From Myxococcales bacterium 68-20 (GTDB taxonomy: Bacteria > Myxococcota_A > Polyangia > Polyangiales > Polyangiaceae), in assembly GCA_001899635.1 (NCBI GenBank), contig MKVQ01000036.1:62001-126000 (forward strand): a stretch of DNA of 64,000 nucleotides, given 5' to 3'. Within the stretch, counting starts at the first letter, position 1, and each line of letters starts with the position of its first letter. Of the stretch, positions 9,182 to 14,626 are shown one piece after another. The translations under genes were made by a program, and so were the position numbers. Under the pieces are notes generated by a model. That model did no database searches. It was not told the origin of the DNA and saw nothing but the letters and a program-made list of their open reading frames with translations.

Positions 9182-10159
9182 TTGCTCGGCGCGACCGCAT
9201 GCGGTGCCGCGGAGGGCGCGGCGCGCGCACGACCGGAGACGAAAGGCGGGAACGCTCGCCTCGCCACCGCGACATCGACGGGAGAAGGAAAAGGCCTCAC
9301 CCGAAGGGCCGCCCTCCGCTACGACATCCGCGGTCGTCCCTTCCCGATGCCGACGGTCTCGGGGACGATCGGAGGAAAGCCGGTGTTGATGCTCGTCGAC
9401 ACGGGCGCCAACTCTCACGTCGTCGCCGGCTGGCTCGCCCGCAAGCTCTCGCTCCCGATGCGGAAGCTCGGAGACCTCGGGAGCGATCACGTCGGCAAGT
9501 CGATCTCCACCTACCGGATCGACGAGCTCGAGATGACGATCGACGGCTGGGGCCCTCTCTCGACGACGACCGTGCTCGCGACGGAAGTGCCCGACGCGTT
9601 CGAGAGGCTCGGCATCGGCGCGTTCATCTCGCCGCAGCGCCTCGACGAGGAGGGTGATGCGGTCGTCGTCGATCTCGCGAAGGGCGAGCTCCGCTCCGCG
9701 TGGTGGGACGAGGCCCACGACGAGCTCTCTGCTACCGGAACGCCGCTCGTGCACCCGGACCAGGCTCGCGCGTGCGAAGAGAACGACGGTCCGGTGAAGG
9801 CCCTCGCGTTCGTGGTGCCGGCGACGCTCGACTCGCACCCGGTGCAGCTCCTCGTCGACACCGGCGCACCGTACTCCGACGTCTTCACCACGTCGGCCGC
9901 AGGCCAGAAGCTCGCGAGTCGGAGCACACCGAACAAGGAAGCGGTGTACACGGTGGCGGGAAAGATCTCCGCGCGCAAGCTGAAGGGCGTCCGCGTCACC
10001 AGCGGCGCGTTCACGCTCACGGCCGACGTCGATCTGATCCAGGGCGCTGCCGACACCTCGTGCCCCCGCGACGGCGTGCTGGCGATGGACGTCCTGCGCT
10101 CGTGCACGCTCCTCTTCGGTCGCTCGCAGGCCTACGGACGCTGCCTGCCCCCGAAGTGA
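9182..10159 (+). CDS. Retropepsin-like aspartic protease domain lipoprotein
   Basis: Two copies of the aspartic protease signature are present, LMLVDTGANSH (nt ~9388-9420) and LLVDTGAPYSD (nt ~9850-9880). The protein is therefore a two-lobe retropepsin-like hydrolase, probably active outside the cytoplasm. The first normal start in frame is TTG 9182, but the frame stays open upstream to a TAG at 9137-9139. The codons at 9146-9181 spell a signal peptide (IIRPLHALLAIALLGATAC) ending in a lipobox-like ATAC. Translation may therefore begin at ATC 9146 or 9149, behind CGGAG at 9132, or the base at 9148 may be an error. The substrate is unknown. The gene converges with the marR gene, 26 bases away. 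Confidence 0.75.
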   Translation: MLGATACGAAEGAARARPETKGGNARLATATSTGEGKGLTRRAALRYDIRGRPFPMPTVSGTIGGKPVLMLVDTGANSHVVAGWLARKLSLPMRKLGDLGSDHVGKSISTYRIDELEMTIDGWGPLSTTTVLATEVPDAFERLGIGAFISPQRLDEEGDAVVVDLAKGELRSAWWDEAHDELSATGTPLVHPDQARACEENDGPVKALAFVVPATLDSHPVQLLVDTGAPYSDVFTTSAAGQKLASRSTPNKEAVYTVAGKISARKLKGVRVTSGAFTLTADVDLIQGAADTSCPRDGVLAMDVLRSCTLLFGRSQAYGRCLPPK

Positions 10160-10185
10160 GGGGCGAGCGCGGTGCCGCCCGCAAC

Positions 10186-10686
10186 TCAGCGATCCGCGCG
10201 CGCGAGCTCCTCAGCGACGGCCGCGAGCACGGAACGCGCAGCGTCGATCGACTCGGGCGGCATCCGGCCGAGCGCACGGCGCACCGCGGCCTCGACGGTG
10301 CCCGCCTGCGTGGCGTCGATCGTCTCGCCCGGCGGCAGCAGGACGAACTTCGATCGCCGCGCGTCCCCCGGATCCTTGTCGCGGCGGACGAACCCTCGAT
10401 CGACGAGGCGGCGGAGAACGCCCGTGAGCGTGCTCGGATGCACATGCACGAGCTCCGCGAGGCGGCCCGCGGCGATCTCGGGATAGCGACCGATGAGGCG
10501 GATGATGGTCCGCTGCATGCCCGTGACGCCGAGCTCGACCTCCATCCGCTTCGAGCGTCGCTGGAGGCCGTGATCGACGGCCCAGAGAAGGCGGAGGAAG
10601 TCGAGGGCGACGCCGAGCTGGCCCGACTCGCGTGCCGACGTCGCCTGCGCGCCGCGGGCTCGCGCCCGTTTCTCTGCCGCGGTCAC
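10186..10686 (-). CDS. MarR family transcriptional regulator
   Basis: The 166-residue product has a winged helix-turn-helix: GRYPEIAAGRLAELVHVHPS and TLTGVLRRLVDRGFVRR, followed by the wing residues DPGDARRSKFVLL. This is the typical MarR/SlyA order. The GTG start at 10684-10686 overlaps the TGA of the upstream radical SAM gene (10683-10685) as GTGA, indicating translational coupling. The regulator therefore probably responds to, or controls, the pathway of that enzyme. An in-frame upstream start would lie inside the radical SAM gene and is unlikely. Confidence 0.87.
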   Translation of the reverse strand: MTAAEKRARARGAQATSARESGQLGVALDFLRLLWAVDHGLQRRSKRMEVELGVTGMQRTIIRLIGRYPEIAAGRLAELVHVHPSTLTGVLRRLVDRGFVRRDKDPGDARRSKFVLLPPGETIDATQAGTVEAAVRRALGRMPPESIDAARSVLAAVAEELARADR

Positions 10687-12527
10687 TGGCCCACCACGAC
10701 CGGCAGGCGGACGCGCTTCGAGGGAAGGGTCACCGTCCCGAGCTCCGGAGAGAGAGGCAGCGCCTGGTTCTTCGCATAGACCGGATGACGCCCGCGGGTG
10801 CGGTTCCACTCGGCGACGCTGGCCGTCGCCTTCATTTTCTCGATGACCTGGCGCCAGCCGATGCCCGTGTTGTAGGCGCAGAAGCTGATCTCACCCATCT
10901 GCGTGCCGTAGGGGATGATGCACATCTCGGTGCGACGGAAGTCGTAGTTGTAGAGGTCCTGGAACCACATCCCGGCGACGAAGAGGACGCGCCACTCGAA
11001 CTCGCCGGCGTCGCTCTCGTGCTCGCCGATCTTCTTCCCGCGCGCGCCGGTCTGACTGAGGAACTGCTTCAGAAGCGTGGGGAAGGTCACCGGCGACGCG
11101 TCGGCGTCGAAGTTCTTCAGGAGCGCGATCGCGAGCTCGGCGAGGGTGAGCGTGCGGCCTCGAGCAGCGTCGGTGATGTCCTGGAGGTCCGAGAGCAGTG
11201 CCTCGAGATCGAGGAACTGGGTGAGCGGGACCGCCTGCTTCGTCTTCTTGTTCACGAAGAGGACGGTGCCGACTCCGCAGTTCGGGTGACAGCCGCACTT
11301 CATCGAGCCCCAGTCGGCGCGCTCGCCGAGCAGGTGGTCGGTGAGGTCGCTGAACGGGCCCATCGCCGACAGCGGGAACCAGTCGCGGAGCGGCTCGGTC
11401 ACGCCGGTCTGCGCTTTGATGTCGTGCGCGAGGTGACTGAGGGTGTAGCGCTGGCGAGCGCGCTGCTCGTCGGAGATGTCCTCGTCGCGACCGGTGAAGC
11501 TCACCGGCTGGAAGCTCACGACGGTGACCTTGTCGGCGTTCTCGATCGCGAAGTCGACGATGCGACCAACCTCGTGATCGTTCACGCCGTTGACGACCGT
11601 GACGACGAGGATGACGTCGATGCCGGCGGCATGCAGGTTCTCGATCGCGCGCACCTTCACGTCGAAGAGGTTCCCCACCTTGCGATGAGAGTTGACCTCG
11701 TTGCCGACGCCGTCGAACTGGAGGTACGCCATGCGGAGGCCGGCGGCCTTCGCCTCGCGCGCGAAGTCGGGCTCCTGCGCGAAGCGGATGCCGTTCGTCG
11801 CGCACTGCACGGCGAAGAACCCCTTCTCTCGCGCGTAGCGGATGGCGCGGAGGAAGTGCGGACTCAGCGTGGGCTCTCCGCCGGAGAACTGGATGCTCAT
11901 CTGACGGCGCGGCTGCACTGTGAGCGCGTCGTCGAGGATCTTCGCGATGTCGTCCCACTCGAGCTCGTGGACGAAACCGACCTGGTTCGCGTCCATGAAG
12001 CACGGGTCGCACATCATGTTGCAGCGGTTGGTGAGGTCGACGGTGAGGACGCTGCCCCGCCCGTACTTGATGCTGGAGCTGCCGTGCTCGCGGAGCTTCG
12101 TCAGCGGGGCGAGGAAATCGCGGCCTGGATACAGCCTCTCGATCCGCCGGAGGAACTCGGCATCGATCGCCATCACGTCCTCGAAGACCCCGTGCGTCGG
12201 GCACTCCTTCTTCATCAGGATCGTCGGCCGGCCGTCACGCACCTCTTCCACGATGTGCGCGCGGATCTCGCCGGGCCGCCCGTCGATGAGCGTTCGGAGA
12301 TCGGTCTTCCCGGAGAGGACGTCGGAGCGGACCTCCTTCACACAGCGCGGGCAGAGCGAGTCGGTCTCACGGGGGAATCCGAGCTGGGGGAAGGAGCGCT
12401 CGCGGCGCTTCGGGAGTGGAGCCGGAGCCCAGGACGGCTGGGGCGCCGGACGCTCGATCGCACGGTTCAGTCGCCGGATGACCGGCCACAGATGACGAGC
12501 CGTCGTCGAGAGAGCGCGCTGGAGCAC
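10683..12527 (-). CDS. Tes/MJ0619-like radical SAM enzyme
   Basis: About 614 residues from GTG 12527; TTG 12545 is an alternative start. It has an N-terminal zinc-ribbon-like part (LCPRCVKE, later KKECPTHGVF) and the radical SAM cluster motif CNMMCDPC (Cx3Cx2C), then FSGGEPTLSP. Further auxiliary-cluster cysteines follow in KCGCHPNCGVGTVLF and in CIIPYGTQMGEISFCAYNTG. This series matches the archaeal tetraether lipid synthase (Tes) and related MJ0619 proteins, which join lipid tails through sp3 carbons. The bacterial role here, perhaps membrane-spanning lipid formation, is inference. It sits 53 bases after the phosphate transporter gene and is coupled to marR. Confidence 0.85.
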   Translation of the reverse strand: MLQRALSTTARHLWPVIRRLNRAIERPAPQPSWAPAPLPKRRERSFPQLGFPRETDSLCPRCVKEVRSDVLSGKTDLRTLIDGRPGEIRAHIVEEVRDGRPTILMKKECPTHGVFEDVMAIDAEFLRRIERLYPGRDFLAPLTKLREHGSSSIKYGRGSVLTVDLTNRCNMMCDPCFMDANQVGFVHELEWDDIAKILDDALTVQPRRQMSIQFSGGEPTLSPHFLRAIRYAREKGFFAVQCATNGIRFAQEPDFAREAKAAGLRMAYLQFDGVGNEVNSHRKVGNLFDVKVRAIENLHAAGIDVILVVTVVNGVNDHEVGRIVDFAIENADKVTVVSFQPVSFTGRDEDISDEQRARQRYTLSHLAHDIKAQTGVTEPLRDWFPLSAMGPFSDLTDHLLGERADWGSMKCGCHPNCGVGTVLFVNKKTKQAVPLTQFLDLEALLSDLQDITDAARGRTLTLAELAIALLKNFDADASPVTFPTLLKQFLSQTGARGKKIGEHESDAGEFEWRVLFVAGMWFQDLYNYDFRRTEMCIIPYGTQMGEISFCAYNTGIGWRQVIEKMKATASVAEWNRTRGRHPVYAKNQALPLSPELGTVTLPSKRVRLPVVVGQ

Positions 12528-12580
12528 GGTCGGGACATTAGCCAAACCGCGTGGTCGCCACCAGGGGGCTCCGGGGCGGG

Positions 12581-13588
12581 TCAGACAGGGATGCCCAGCG
12601 CCCGCATCAGGACGAACGCGAGCGCGCCGATGGCCGCCGCGCCCGGAACCGTGAGCACCCACGACCAGACGATGCGCTGAGCGACCCCCCACCTCACCGC
12701 CGACAGCTTGCGGACGGAGCCCACGCCGACGATGGCGCCGGTGATCGTGTGCGTCGTCGAGACGGGGATCCCGAGCGCCGTCGCCGTGAAGAGCGTGGCG
12801 GCTCCGGCCGACTCGGCGGCGAAACCGCCGACCGGCGCGAGCTTCGTGATCTTCATGCCCATCGTCTTCACGATCCGCCAGCCTCCGCTGAGGGTGCCGA
12901 GCCCCATCGCGGCGTGGCAGGCGAGGACGACCCAGAGCGGGATGGGTTGAGGTTCTCCCTTCGGCGCCGCGACGACCACCTGGTTCGCGAGCAGCGCGGC
13001 GACGATGATGCCCATCGTCTTCTGGGCGTCGTTGCCGCCGTGCCCGAGCGAGTAGAGCGCCGCCGAGACGAGCTGTCCGCGCCGAAAGATCCAGTCGACC
13101 GTGCGCGGCGAGCGCTGGCCGAAGAGCGCCATCGTCAGCTTCATGATCGCGAAGCCGAGGACGAGGCCAATCAACGGCGAGAGCAGGATGAACAGCGCCG
13201 TCTTCCCGAAGAACGGGAGGTCGAGCGCTCCTGCTCCGGCCTTCACGAGCGCGGCACCGGCGAGCCCCCCGAGGAGCGCATGCGAGGACGACGTCGGCAG
13301 CCCCCACCACCACGTCAGGAGGTCCCAGATCACGGCGCCGACGAGGCCGGCCGTGACGAGCCCGAGCGTGACCACAGCGGGGTCGATCCCCTTCGCGATG
13401 TTGCCGGCGACATGTGTACTGAAGACGAGGAACGCCACGAAGTTGAAGGTCGCGGCCCAGATGACCGCGACGTTCGGGGAGAGGACGCGCGTGGAGACGA
13501 CGGTTGCGATGCTGTTGGCGGCGTCATGGAAGCCGTTGATGAAGTCGAAGACGAGCGCCAGGACGATGACGAGAACGAGCGCGGTCAT
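12581..13588 (-). CDS. pit: Inorganic phosphate transporter, Pit family
   Basis: A 335-residue integral membrane protein with the two Pit signature repeats, FDFINGFHDAANSIATVVSTRVL near the N-terminus and YSLGHGGNDAQKTMGIIVAAL in the second half. These carry the duplicated GxNDA-type phosphate/cation-binding motifs of the PHO4 fold. It imports metal-phosphate by proton symport across the inner membrane. The start codon lies one base after the stop of the DUF47 gene, the usual partner of Pit transporters. Confidence 0.94.
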   Translation of the reverse strand: MTALVLVIVLALVFDFINGFHDAANSIATVVSTRVLSPNVAVIWAATFNFVAFLVFSTHVAGNIAKGIDPAVVTLGLVTAGLVGAVIWDLLTWWWGLPTSSSHALLGGLAGAALVKAGAGALDLPFFGKTALFILLSPLIGLVLGFAIMKLTMALFGQRSPRTVDWIFRRGQLVSAALYSLGHGGNDAQKTMGIIVAALLANQVVVAAPKGEPQPIPLWVVLACHAAMGLGTLSGGWRIVKTMGMKITKLAPVGGFAAESAGAATLFTATALGIPVSTTHTITGAIVGVGSVRKLSAVRWGVAQRIVWSWVLTVPGAAAIGALAFVLMRALGIPV

Positions 13589-13589
13589 G

Positions 13590-14267
13590 TCACGCGTACT
13601 CGAGGACCACGCCTTCGACGACGTTGGCGACGTCCTCGCAGCTGTCCATTGCCGACTCGAGGCTCTCGAAGATGTCGCGCCACTTCATGACCAAGAGCGG
13701 CTCGTTCCCCCTCCTGAAGAGCTCGGCGGTCGCCTTGCGGTGCACGGTGTCGGCAGCGTTCTCGAGCCGATTCACCTCCACGCACAGCTCGAGGATCGCC
13801 GGCGCCTGCTTCATGTCGTGGAGTAGTCCGGTCGCCTTCCCGATCGCCTCGCAGGCACGAACAAGAAGCTCGGCGAGCTCGCTCGCCTCCTTGGGAGCGG
13901 TCCGCACCTCGAACAGAGCCAACCGATCGGCGGCCTCCTCGATGAAGTCGAGGACGTCATCCATGCACGTGATGAGATCGTGGATGTCGGTGCGGTCGAG
14001 CGGCGTGATCCAGTTCTCACGCAGGCGCTTGATGGTGTCGTGGGTGATCCGGTCGCCCTCGCTCTCCACCTCCTTGATCCGCGACGCGGTCGAGATCGCC
14101 ATCTCATCGGCGGGGCCGGCACCGTCCTCGCTCACGTAGGGCGCGCCGGGGATCGCCGCGAGGCGCTTGATGAGGTCGAGGAGCATCTTCGCCGCGTCGA
14201 CGCTACGGTCGGCGTGGCTCGAGAACGCGCTGAAGAACGCCGCATCCTTCCGGCTCGAACCGAACAT
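13590..14267 (-). CDS. DUF47 (PhoU-like) Pit accessory protein
   Basis: This 225-residue, all-helical PhoU-like protein belongs to the DUF47/TIGR00153 family. Typical segments are FFSAFSSHADRSVDAAKML, SRIKEVESEGDRITHDTIKRL and TPLDRTDIHDLITCMDDVLD, the last with clustered acidic residues that bind metal in the fold. I place the start at ATG 14267, after a GAGAGGCAGG ribosome site; the frame is open to 14318. Family members are encoded next to Pit transporters and modulate their activity. Here the stop is one base before the pit start. It is the first gene of the leftward cluster. Confidence 0.92.
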   Translation of the reverse strand: MFGSSRKDAAFFSAFSSHADRSVDAAKMLLDLIKRLAAIPGAPYVSEDGAGPADEMAISTASRIKEVESEGDRITHDTIKRLRENWITPLDRTDIHDLITCMDDVLDFIEEAADRLALFEVRTAPKEASELAELLVRACEAIGKATGLLHDMKQAPAILELCVEVNRLENAADTVHRKATAELFRRGNEPLLVMKWRDIFESLESAMDSCEDVANVVEGVVLEYA

Positions 14268-14368
14268 GAGCCTGCCTCTCGAACCATTGGCGCCTTCGCC
14301 GGGGGCCGGCTGATGCAAGAGGTGGACGCACCTGGACGCATGCCTGGAGGAGCTGCGATAGTGGCGCC

Positions 14369-14626
14369 GTGCAGGGGAAAAACCTCGTCATCGGTCTCCT
14401 CGGCGCGCTGGTCGCCGCGCTCGGGTTCGTGTTTTGGCTGGGCGCCACCGGCGGCGGGCGGGCGTCCGACAGCGGCCTCGCGCAGTCGTCCGTGGGTCGC
14501 GCTCCGCCGGAGCCACGACCAACCTCCACAGCAACGACGGCCGCGCCCGACAGCGGTGCGGATCACGACGGGGGCACGGTCAGCGCGACCGTGACGGATA
14601 CGCCGGACGGCGGCAAGGGCCGCTGA
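14369..14626 (+). CDS. Small membrane-anchored hypothetical protein
   Basis: An 85-residue product from GTG 14369. A single hydrophobic helix (LVIGLLGALVAALGFVFWLG) is followed by a Ser/Thr/Pro/Asp-rich, unstructured tail ending in DTPDGGKGR. It is divergent from the DUF47 gene. The N-in membrane anchor and biased but coherent composition suggest a real small envelope protein. No family is recognised. Confidence 0.5.
   Translation: MQGKNLVIGLLGALVAALGFVFWLGATGGGRASDSGLAQSSVGRAPPEPRPTSTATTAAPDSGADHDGGTVSATVTDTPDGGKGR

What the first reader, a model, noticed from the sequence alone, without database searches (positions are those of the whole stretch)
10186..14267. Tetraether-synthase-like radical SAM enzyme in a phosphate-transport/MarR cluster
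The cysteine series (CPRC/CPTHG, CNMMCDPC, CGCHPNCG, C...FCAYN) is that of Tes, which makes membrane-spanning lipids in archaea. Related genes are known in bacteria but few are characterised. The coupled MarR gene and the preceding Pit/DUF47 genes on the same strand are not an arrangement I know. The four genes could link phosphate status to membrane lipid remodelling.
Basis: partly seen in the sequence, partly recalled or inferred. Interest (0 to 1): 0.66.

Follow-up and report, generated by a model that had tools for sequence, protein, structure and literature searches.

The report
Variant of the membrane-spanning-lipid enzyme Tes
A myxobacterium carries a distinct, uncharacterised variant of the archaeal enzyme that welds two lipid tails together into membrane-spanning lipids; the variant is common in Acidobacteria and in Sorangium relatives and is a testable candidate for making such lipids there, while its phosphate-transport neighbours are probably there by accident of gene order.

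Summary
Confirmed: 10683-12527 (-) encodes a radical SAM protein of Tes (tetraether synthase) type, between DUF47-Pit and a translationally coupled MarR gene. It is not canonical Tes: 344.9 bits against a 450-bit cut-off, and the N-terminal auxiliary [4Fe-4S] site is missing. It belongs to a strongly supported clade (here "TLN"). All 112 TLN sequences aligned keep the radical SAM and rubredoxin-type sites; all but one truncated row keep the catalytic C-terminal cluster ligands, including the labile Met; none keeps C77, C80 or H83 of the N-cluster. The predicted fold is Tes (Z 37). TLN is in 143 of 297 Acidobacteriota genomes sampled (canonical Tes in 34) and 32 of 377 Myxococcota; named records include Sorangium, Minicystis and Polyangium. 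The phosphate link fails: Pit/DUF47 adjoin TLN in 1 of 112 loci, and in four relatives the pair lies elsewhere. MarR adjoins it in 5 of 112. Best reading: a phospholipid tail-coupling enzyme making iso-diabolic-type membrane-spanning lipids. Family and missing cluster are shown; the reaction is inferred; Mss is an untested rival in the same phyla. TLN proteins were probably among published "bacterial Tes homologues", but I found no report separating or assaying them.

The parts
10683..12527 (-). TLN gene: Tes-like radical SAM protein, 614 aa (GTG start; TTG at 12545 possible)
   Evidence: NF045702 344.9 bits, cut-off 450; 7tol E 2e-71; fold Z 37.1 to 7tom; 31 other genomes with a homologue at 65-87% identity among 377 Myxococcota genomes
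12459..12524 (-). N-terminal helix (residues 2-23), basic and amphipathic in the window protein; outside the part of the model aligned to 7tom (51-581)
   Evidence: model secondary structure; hydrophobic moment 0.87, reached by 2 of 1000 shuffles; clearly lower in six of seven relatives looked at
12192..12353 (-). rubredoxin-type metal site C59-X2-C62 ... C109-X2-H112 (MjTes C9, C12, C33, H36)
   Evidence: conserved in 112 of 112 TLN rows and 29 of 30 canonical rows, one with a gap there
12060..12098 (-). stretch where the N-terminal auxiliary [4Fe-4S] motif of Tes is missing (residues 144-156, no Cys; invariant H148)
   Evidence: C77, C80, H83 of MjTes: 30 of 30 canonical rows, 0 of 112 TLN rows
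12000..12023 (-). radical SAM cluster motif C169-X3-C173-X2-C176
   Evidence: 112 of 112 TLN rows; PF04055
10878..11297 (-). C-terminal catalytic cluster ligands C417, M520, C536, C550 (MjTes C338, M439, C455, C470), with the clade-typical C411; C413 is shared with 24 of 30 canonical rows
   Evidence: ligands kept in all TLN rows except one truncated sequence; C411 in 112 of 112 TLN rows, mostly Ile, Val, Leu or Phe in canonical rows
10186..10686 (-). MarR-type regulator, start overlapping the TLN stop (GTGA)
   Evidence: PF01047/PF12802; beside TLN in 5 of 112 loci: window, L064, L098, L109, L126
12581..13588 (-). Pit-type phosphate transporter; neighbour of TLN in the window only
   Evidence: PF01384; next to TLN in 1 of 112 loci
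13590..14267 (-). DUF47/PhoU-like partner of Pit; neighbour of TLN in the window only
   Evidence: PF01865; in G347, G254, G295, G239 it lies beside Pit but away from TLN

Best explanation
TLN is a Tes-family radical SAM enzyme that acts on membrane phospholipid tails. The radical SAM cluster makes a 5'-deoxyadenosyl radical, which takes a hydrogen from the end of one acyl or alkyl tail. The tail radical is parked on the C-terminal [4Fe-4S] cluster (three Cys plus a labile Met), and a second activated tail couples to it. With bacterial iso-branched lipids this would give iso-diabolic-type membrane-spanning lipids. The clade has lost the surface N-terminal auxiliary cluster of Tes, so electrons must reach the active site without it. 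SHOWN: Tes homology and fold, kept radical SAM and C-cluster ligands, lost N-cluster, separate clade, distribution. INFERRED: substrate, coupling reaction, product, electron route. In this lineage a translationally coupled MarR protein probably regulates the gene (inferred). The Pit/DUF47 neighbours are taken to be incidental.
For: Best profile is Tes (NF045702, 344.9 bits, E 7e-103), best PDB sequence is MjTes, and the model matches 7tom at Z 37.1, rmsd 2.5, 466 of 498 residues, with the next other protein at Z 19. C338/M439/C455/C470, the ligand set of the cluster assigned to the C terminus in Lloyd et al. 2022 (PMC9433317, passages; Met439 is named there, the Cys positions come from my alignment), are kept in 112 of 112 rows apart from one truncation. 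Lipid context: TLN lies directly upstream of a canonical tes on the same strand in L222, and near one in L223 and L224; a CDP-alcohol phosphatidyltransferase (PIP-synthase-like, below the curated cut-offs) follows 6 nt downstream in L169, with homologues near TLN in L137 and, on the other strand, L133. 31 of 32 TLN-bearing Myxococcota also hold a PlsA/Ger-like protein, against 102 of 345 without TLN. TLN is in 143 of 297 Acidobacteriota genomes, a phylum in which iso-diabolic acid was reported from subdivisions 1, 3, 4 and 6 (PMC13274423, passages). Edaphobacter aggregans, an iso-diabolic acid maker, has a single Tes homologue at 32% identity to MA_1486, while those of Koribacter and Solibacter are at 42% and 40% (PMC8941075, passages); against MjTes, TLN rows are 29-34% and canonical rows 38-48%, so the Edaphobacter protein falls in the TLN band (inference; different reference proteins).
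Against: It scores below the Tes equivalog cut-off, and one of three [4Fe-4S] sites is absent. A confirmed bacterial coupling enzyme, Mss, is already known and its homologues were reported in 11 of 97 acidobacterial and 12 of 347 Myxococcota Black Sea MAGs (PMC11868695, passages), so TLN is not needed to explain every producer. There is no conserved operon: the neighbour is on the same strand upstream in 34 of 88 and downstream in 45 of 89 non-redundant loci that have one, and the 46 of 59 close same-strand neighbours that I scanned fall in many unrelated families. No membrane-spanning lipid of Sorangium or Polyangium showed in the one search made for it (listing). TLN also occurs in Holophagales and Thermoanaerobaculia MAGs, which to my recollection lie outside the four producing subdivisions. 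Koribacter makes iso-diabolic tetraesters (PMC13274423) and has a canonical-band homologue. No named cultured acidobacterium could be checked for TLN. The Ger-like association ignores ancestry, and that query was the window genome's own protein. The model has pLDDT under 50 at residues 172-184, which include two of the three radical SAM Cys.
Confidence: 0.6

Rival explanations
1. TLN acts on lipid tails but does not join them: it puts in methyl branches, rings or an unsaturation, or makes an intramolecular bond, while canonical Tes or Mss does the coupling in these phyla.
For: TLN and canonical tes lie side by side in L222 and close together in L223 and L224, so in those genomes the two may catalyse different steps; 12 of the 34 canonical-Tes genomes also hold TLN (compared by hand). 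Mss homologues are reported from some Acidobacteria and Myxococcota MAGs (PMC11868695, passages). The clade has its own Cys (C411) and changed residues such as M-W for M-H and H187 for Tyr.
Against: 131 of 143 TLN-bearing Acidobacteriota genomes have no match over the Tes cut-off, so TLN usually stands without a canonical Tes; whether they hold Mss was not tested. The complete C-cluster ligand set, including the labile Met, is kept.
Confidence: 0.22
2. The four genes form one phosphate-responsive operon that remodels the membrane when phosphate is scarce.
For: Same strand, gaps of 1, 35-53 and minus 4 nt; 0 promoter-like sites in 10100-14500 (a sigma-70 consensus that says little in such a genome).
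Against: Pit/DUF47 adjoin TLN in 1 of 112 loci. In G347, G254, G295 and G239 the orthologous DUF47-Pit pair lies elsewhere. Co-transcription in this one strain is not excluded.
Confidence: 0.06
3. TLN is a radical SAM enzyme of a small-molecule pathway (pterin or cofactor methylation), as the Pfam domain name HMPTM suggests.
For: The Zn_ribbon_HMPTM domain matches; MJ0619 itself was earlier linked to pterin methylation (recalled; alluded to in PMC9433317).
Against: Lloyd et al. could not corroborate the earlier activity of the MjTes protein and found lipids in its pocket (PMC9433317, passages). TLN matches that fold over 466 residues and keeps its C-terminal cluster ligands.
Confidence: 0.06

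Closest known systems
Tes / GDGT-MAS (MJ0619, PDB 7tol, 7tom; NCBIfam NF045702)
   Same: Fold over almost the whole enzyme (Z 37), rubredoxin-type site, radical SAM cluster, C-terminal cluster with labile Met
   Different: No N-terminal auxiliary [4Fe-4S] site; 29-34% identity; below the equivalog cut-off; about 50-residue N-terminal extension with a helix; extra C411
Canonical Tes homologues of Acidobacteriota (L192-L221)
   Same: Same superfamily; adjacent to TLN in L222; some (L218, L220, L221) are the nearest branches to TLN in the tree
   Different: 30 of 30 keep the N-cluster; 38-48% identity to MjTes against 29-34% for TLN; in 34 of 297 genomes against 143 for TLN
'Bacterial Tes homologues' of Zeng et al. 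2022 (PMC8941075, passages)
   Different: The passages I saw do not separate an N-cluster-less group; their supplementary tree was not available to me
Mss, bacterial membrane-spanning lipid synthase (Sahonero-Canavesi et al. 2022; known here through passages of PMC13274423 and PMC11868695)
   Same: Couples fatty acid tails into (iso-)diabolic acid; modelled Mss is said to share the catalytic architecture of Tes (PMC13274423)
   Different: Not compared directly: the 2022 paper is not held and no sequence was on hand; T. maritima gave no NF045702 match at E<=1e-40
Radical SAM protein TrsS (NF045646)
   Same: Second-best profile (220.6 bits, cut-off 490)
   Different: Far below cut-off; the best stretch covers residues 101-376 only
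Ger / PlsA (glycerol ester reductase / plasmalogen synthase)
   Same: A protein with two activase domains and DUF2229 is encoded elsewhere in the same genome (L232:2998-6654) and a homologue accompanies TLN in 31 of 32 Myxococcota
   Different: A different enzyme; not compared with Ger or PlsA sequences; whether it makes ether bonds is not known

Membership tests
Tes (NF045702 equivalog) | score at or above the curated cut-off of 450 bits | tested here: not met
   344.9 bits; 0 of 377 Myxococcota genomes reach it
Tes | radical SAM CX3CX2C cluster in a partial TIM barrel | tested here: met
   PF04055 E 5e-23; C169/C173/C176 in 112 of 112 TLN rows
Tes | rubredoxin-type CX2C...CX2H site | tested here: met
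   C59, C62, C109, H112 in 112 of 112
Tes | N-terminal auxiliary [4Fe-4S] bound by C73, C77, C80 and His | tested here: not met
   C77, C80, H83: 0 of 112 TLN, 30 of 30 canonical; the printed counts leave two TLN rows unstated at C73
Tes | C-terminal [4Fe-4S] with three Cys and labile Met439 | tested here: met
   C338/M439/C455/C470 equivalents in all TLN rows but one truncated; binding itself not tested
Tes | overall Tes fold | tested here: met
   model pTM 0.88; 7tom Z 37.1, rmsd 2.5, 466 aligned
Tes | couples two sp3 lipid tail carbons | not testable with these tools
   needs lipid assay
Mss | placement in the Mss clade | not testable with these tools
   no Mss sequence on hand; founding paper not held
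MarR family (10186-10686) | winged-helix MarR domain over Pfam cut-off | tested here: met
   PF01047 48.1 bits, cut-off 24.6
conserved phosphate-lipid operon | Pit/DUF47 next to TLN in relatives | tested here: not met
   1 of 112 loci; orthologous pair elsewhere in four relatives

The most novel reading that the evidence does not exclude
TLN is the main iso-diabolic acid synthase of aerobic and microaerobic Acidobacteria and of Polyangia: a Tes that shed its surface auxiliary cluster, perhaps to work in oxygen-exposed cells. If so it supplies the backbone of many soil brGDGTs, and cultured Sorangium, Minicystis and Polyangium should hold unreported membrane-spanning lipids.
Probability: 0.35. 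Interest if true: 0.82.

Novelty: new variant of a known kind. Interest (0 to 1): 0.57.

Why it matters
Branched tetraethers, with iso-diabolic acid as their building block, underlie soil and lake palaeothermometers. Which enzyme joins the tails in Acidobacteria, the best-known producers, is not settled in what I read: a 2022 paper calls it unknown and points to Tes homologues for Solibacter (PMC10087280, section 4.4), while others use Mss. TLN is a named, sharply bounded gene family (three lost ligand positions, a retained catalytic cluster) in 143 of 297 Acidobacteriota genomes sampled, and in three myxobacterial genera with named strains in which the prediction can be tested. It also shows that a metallocofactor of Tes whose role is not clear can be lost by a whole clade, which bears on the Tes mechanism.

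Tried and rejected
Phosphate-lipid operon: rejected as a conserved unit. Conserved gene neighbourhood of TLN: searched by all-against-all ORF clustering in Myxococcota and in 43 mostly acidobacterial loci. Only local, clade-wise neighbours appeared (a FAD oxidoreductase upstream in 6 loci, a CDP-alcohol phosphatidyltransferase in 3). Of 59 same-strand neighbours within 300 nt, 46 were scanned with Pfam (10, 36) and 13 were not. Promoter/terminator scan: 0 promoter-like sites; 5 terminator-like sites against 1.1 expected, four on the plus strand and one inside DUF47 on the minus strand; I drew nothing from it. A second Tes-type gene in the window genome: none seen (one search found one match at E<=1e-60; one search found two further weak, partial radical SAM matches). 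Phylogenetic test against Mss: not possible. Naming cultured Acidobacteria that hold TLN: the only genome-contig scan kept 80 of 573 relatives, with no named acidobacterial isolate among them. A first alignment had loci of minus-strand matches the wrong way round; it was discarded and redone. Statements on what is not in print rest on the listings (open-licence papers only); a few papers were opened at passages, one at a section, none read whole.

Tree caveats: the tree used 95 rows; 30 of 80 named TLN rows were dropped at random and 10 of 32 unnamed TLN rows (window included) were used. One search left out nine of those 95 rows as long-branched or odd (MjTes, L188-L191, L217, L218, L073, L139). 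Both were quick searches with SH-aLRT support only, and the program warned that long branches may attract. The place of TLN relative to particular canonical branches is unsure. The Fisher tests ignore ancestry; within the window's own family the counts are 23 of 24 against 5 of 11. The handle lists used were copied by hand.
Full report
WHAT IS THERE. The minus strand of 10186-14267 holds four genes: DUF47/PhoU-like (13590-14267), Pit (12581-13588), a 614-residue radical SAM protein (10683-12527) and a MarR regulator whose likely GTG start at 10686 overlaps the radical SAM stop codon. The window lies in an 11.9 Mb genome of 52 contigs. The nearest named relative of the radical SAM protein is from Labilithrix sp. 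ACE_MYX8 at 84%, so the host is a Polyangia myxobacterium (inference).

THE RADICAL SAM PROTEIN. Its best curated model is Tes (NF045702), but at 344.9 bits against a cut-off of 450. Its best PDB sequence is MjTes (7tol, E 2e-71). An AlphaFold2 model from 40 sequences (mean pLDDT 83, pTM 0.88; residues 172-184, which include two of the three radical SAM Cys, are under 50) matches 7tom at Z 37.1, rmsd 2.5 over 466 residues; the next other protein, MoaA, is at Z 19. So the Tes fold is not in doubt.

WHAT IS MISSING. Lloyd et al. (PMC9433317, passages) assign in MjTes a rubredoxin-type site (C9, C12, C33, H36), an N-terminal auxiliary cluster (C73, C77, C80 and a His), the radical SAM cluster, and a C-terminal cluster with labile Met439; [quoted passage not shown] I aligned 112 relatives of the window protein (32 from Myxococcota genomes, window included, and 80 from named records; 100 non-redundant), 30 canonical acidobacterial Tes and MjTes. 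Rubredoxin site: 112 of 112 relatives. Radical SAM Cys: 112 of 112. C-cluster C338/M439/C455/C470: all but one truncated row. N-cluster C77, C80 and H83: 0 of 112 relatives against 30 of 30 canonical; C73 is not Cys in at least 110 of 112 (the printed counts leave two rows unstated). C411 is invariant in the relatives and not a feature of the canonical set. Identity to MjTes is 29-34% for the relatives and 38-48% for the canonical set, with no overlap. I call the group TLN (Tes-like, N-cluster-less). It is one clade with SH-aLRT 100 in two quick trees (61 of 95 rows, 58 of 86 rows), on a long branch within or beside bacterial Tes.

WHERE IT OCCURS. Among 377 Myxococcota genomes, 44 match at E<=1e-30: 32 (the window genome included) in the TLN band (E<=1e-200) and 12 weak partial ones near E 1e-30 to 1e-38. 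0 of 377 pass the Tes cut-off. Among 297 Acidobacteriota genomes, 143 hold TLN at E<=1e-120, 34 hold canonical Tes, and 12 hold both (lists compared by hand). The named scan kept 80 of 573 relatives: Sorangium, Polyangium, Minicystis, Labilithrix and Byssovorax, many acidobacterial MAGs (Terriglobia, Bryobacterales, Sulfopaludibacter, Pyrinomonadaceae, Blastocatellia, Chloracidobacterium, Thermoanaerobaculia, Holophagales), and single Latescibacterota and Acidimicrobiia MAGs.

SURROUNDINGS. Pit and DUF47 adjoin TLN only in the window (1 of 112 loci; many flanks are short). In the closest relative, G347, the orthologous pair (74% and 52%) lies about 245 kb from TLN on the same contig; in G254, G295 and G239 it is on other contigs. 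MarR follows TLN in the window, L064, L098, L109 and L126. TLN is often a stand-alone gene: the neighbour is on the same strand upstream in 34 of 88 and downstream in 45 of 89 loci that have a called neighbour. Three contexts point to lipids. First, a canonical tes lies directly downstream in L222 (574.3 bits, over cut-off; TLN there 326.2), and beyond one large opposite-strand gene in L223 and L224. Second, a CDP-alcohol phosphatidyltransferase (Pfam; closest NCBIfam models PIP synthases, below cut-off) lies 6 nt downstream in L169, with a homologue near TLN in L137 and, on the opposite strand, L133. Third, a protein with two activase domains and DUF2229, the make-up described for Ger (PMC13274423, passages), is encoded elsewhere in the genome (L232:2998-6654). 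A homologue is found in 31 of 32 TLN-bearing and 102 of 345 TLN-free Myxococcota; within the window's family 23 of 24 against 5 of 11. G061 lacks it at that threshold and G335 matches only in part. These counts ignore ancestry. The other same-strand neighbours that I scanned are of many unrelated families (46 of 59 scanned).

MECHANISM AND FUNCTION. The kept set is what Tes is reported to use for making the alkyl radical and holding the alkyl on a cluster sulfur; the roles of its other metal sites were left open. I therefore take TLN to be a tail-tail coupling enzyme for bacterial phospholipids. Published facts that fit: iso-diabolic acid is reported from Acidobacteria of subdivisions 1, 3, 4 and 6 (PMC13274423, passages), with high shares in Occallatibacter (PMC12935467, passages) and presence in Pyrinomonas and Chloracidobacterium (PMC4644332, PMC12816986, passages); Tes homologues were proposed as the coupling enzymes of Solibacter (PMC10087280, section 4.4); and Edaphobacter aggregans has one Tes homologue at 32% identity to MA_1486 (PMC8941075, passages), which falls in the TLN band of my MjTes comparison. 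Facts that do not fit well: Mss is a known bacterial coupling enzyme and is reported from some Acidobacteria and Myxococcota MAGs (PMC11868695, passages), and I could not test for it; Koribacter makes iso-diabolic tetraesters with a canonical-band homologue; TLN occurs in MAGs of groups that, as I recall, are not known for iso-diabolic acid; Solibacter is reported without detectable iso-diabolic acid (PMC10087280), though PMC13274423 also mentions iso-diabolic tetraesters from it, and the types of its Tes homologues could not be assigned. No report of membrane-spanning lipids in Sorangium or Polyangium showed (listing only).

VERDICT. It is a new variant of a known kind and a directly testable candidate for iso-diabolic acid synthesis.

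Noticed in passing
L189 (G389:C77:109574-110932), L190, L191; matches of similar score in G339, G370, G368, G292: In Polyangium fumosum a further Tes-like group (194-257 bits) keeps the N-cluster Cys but has His where Tes and TLN have the labile Met439 (3 of 3 rows).
   Followed up: partly
L232:2998-6654 (+), window genome contig C49: 1218-aa protein with two BcrAD_BadFG domains and DUF2229, the make-up described for Ger/PlsA ether-lipid enzymes.
   Followed up: partly
L188 (G380:C4) and second copies in G427, G475, G493, G502, G529, G537, G561, G591 and others: Several Acidobacteriota genomes carry two TLN-type genes; the L188 copy is the deepest branch of the clade in the tree.
   Followed up: no
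L142, L144, L145, L148, L150, L124, about 100-230 bp upstream of TLN: A FAD-dependent oxidoreductase (DAO family in L142) or its homologue precedes TLN on the same strand in these six acidobacterial loci.
   Followed up: no
window 9182-10159 (+): A gene next to MarR with VDTGA motifs (aspartyl-protease-like by eye, no profile run); related ORFs lie beside TLN in L064, L070 and L071 (cluster 23).
   Followed up: no
G568:C114:21495-23321: The TLN match in this acidobacterium reads through one in-frame TGA; error or broken gene not examined.
   Followed up: no
G000:C35:26616-28146: The window genome has a second, diverged DUF47-Pit pair (Pit 51%, DUF47 30% identity).
   Followed up: no
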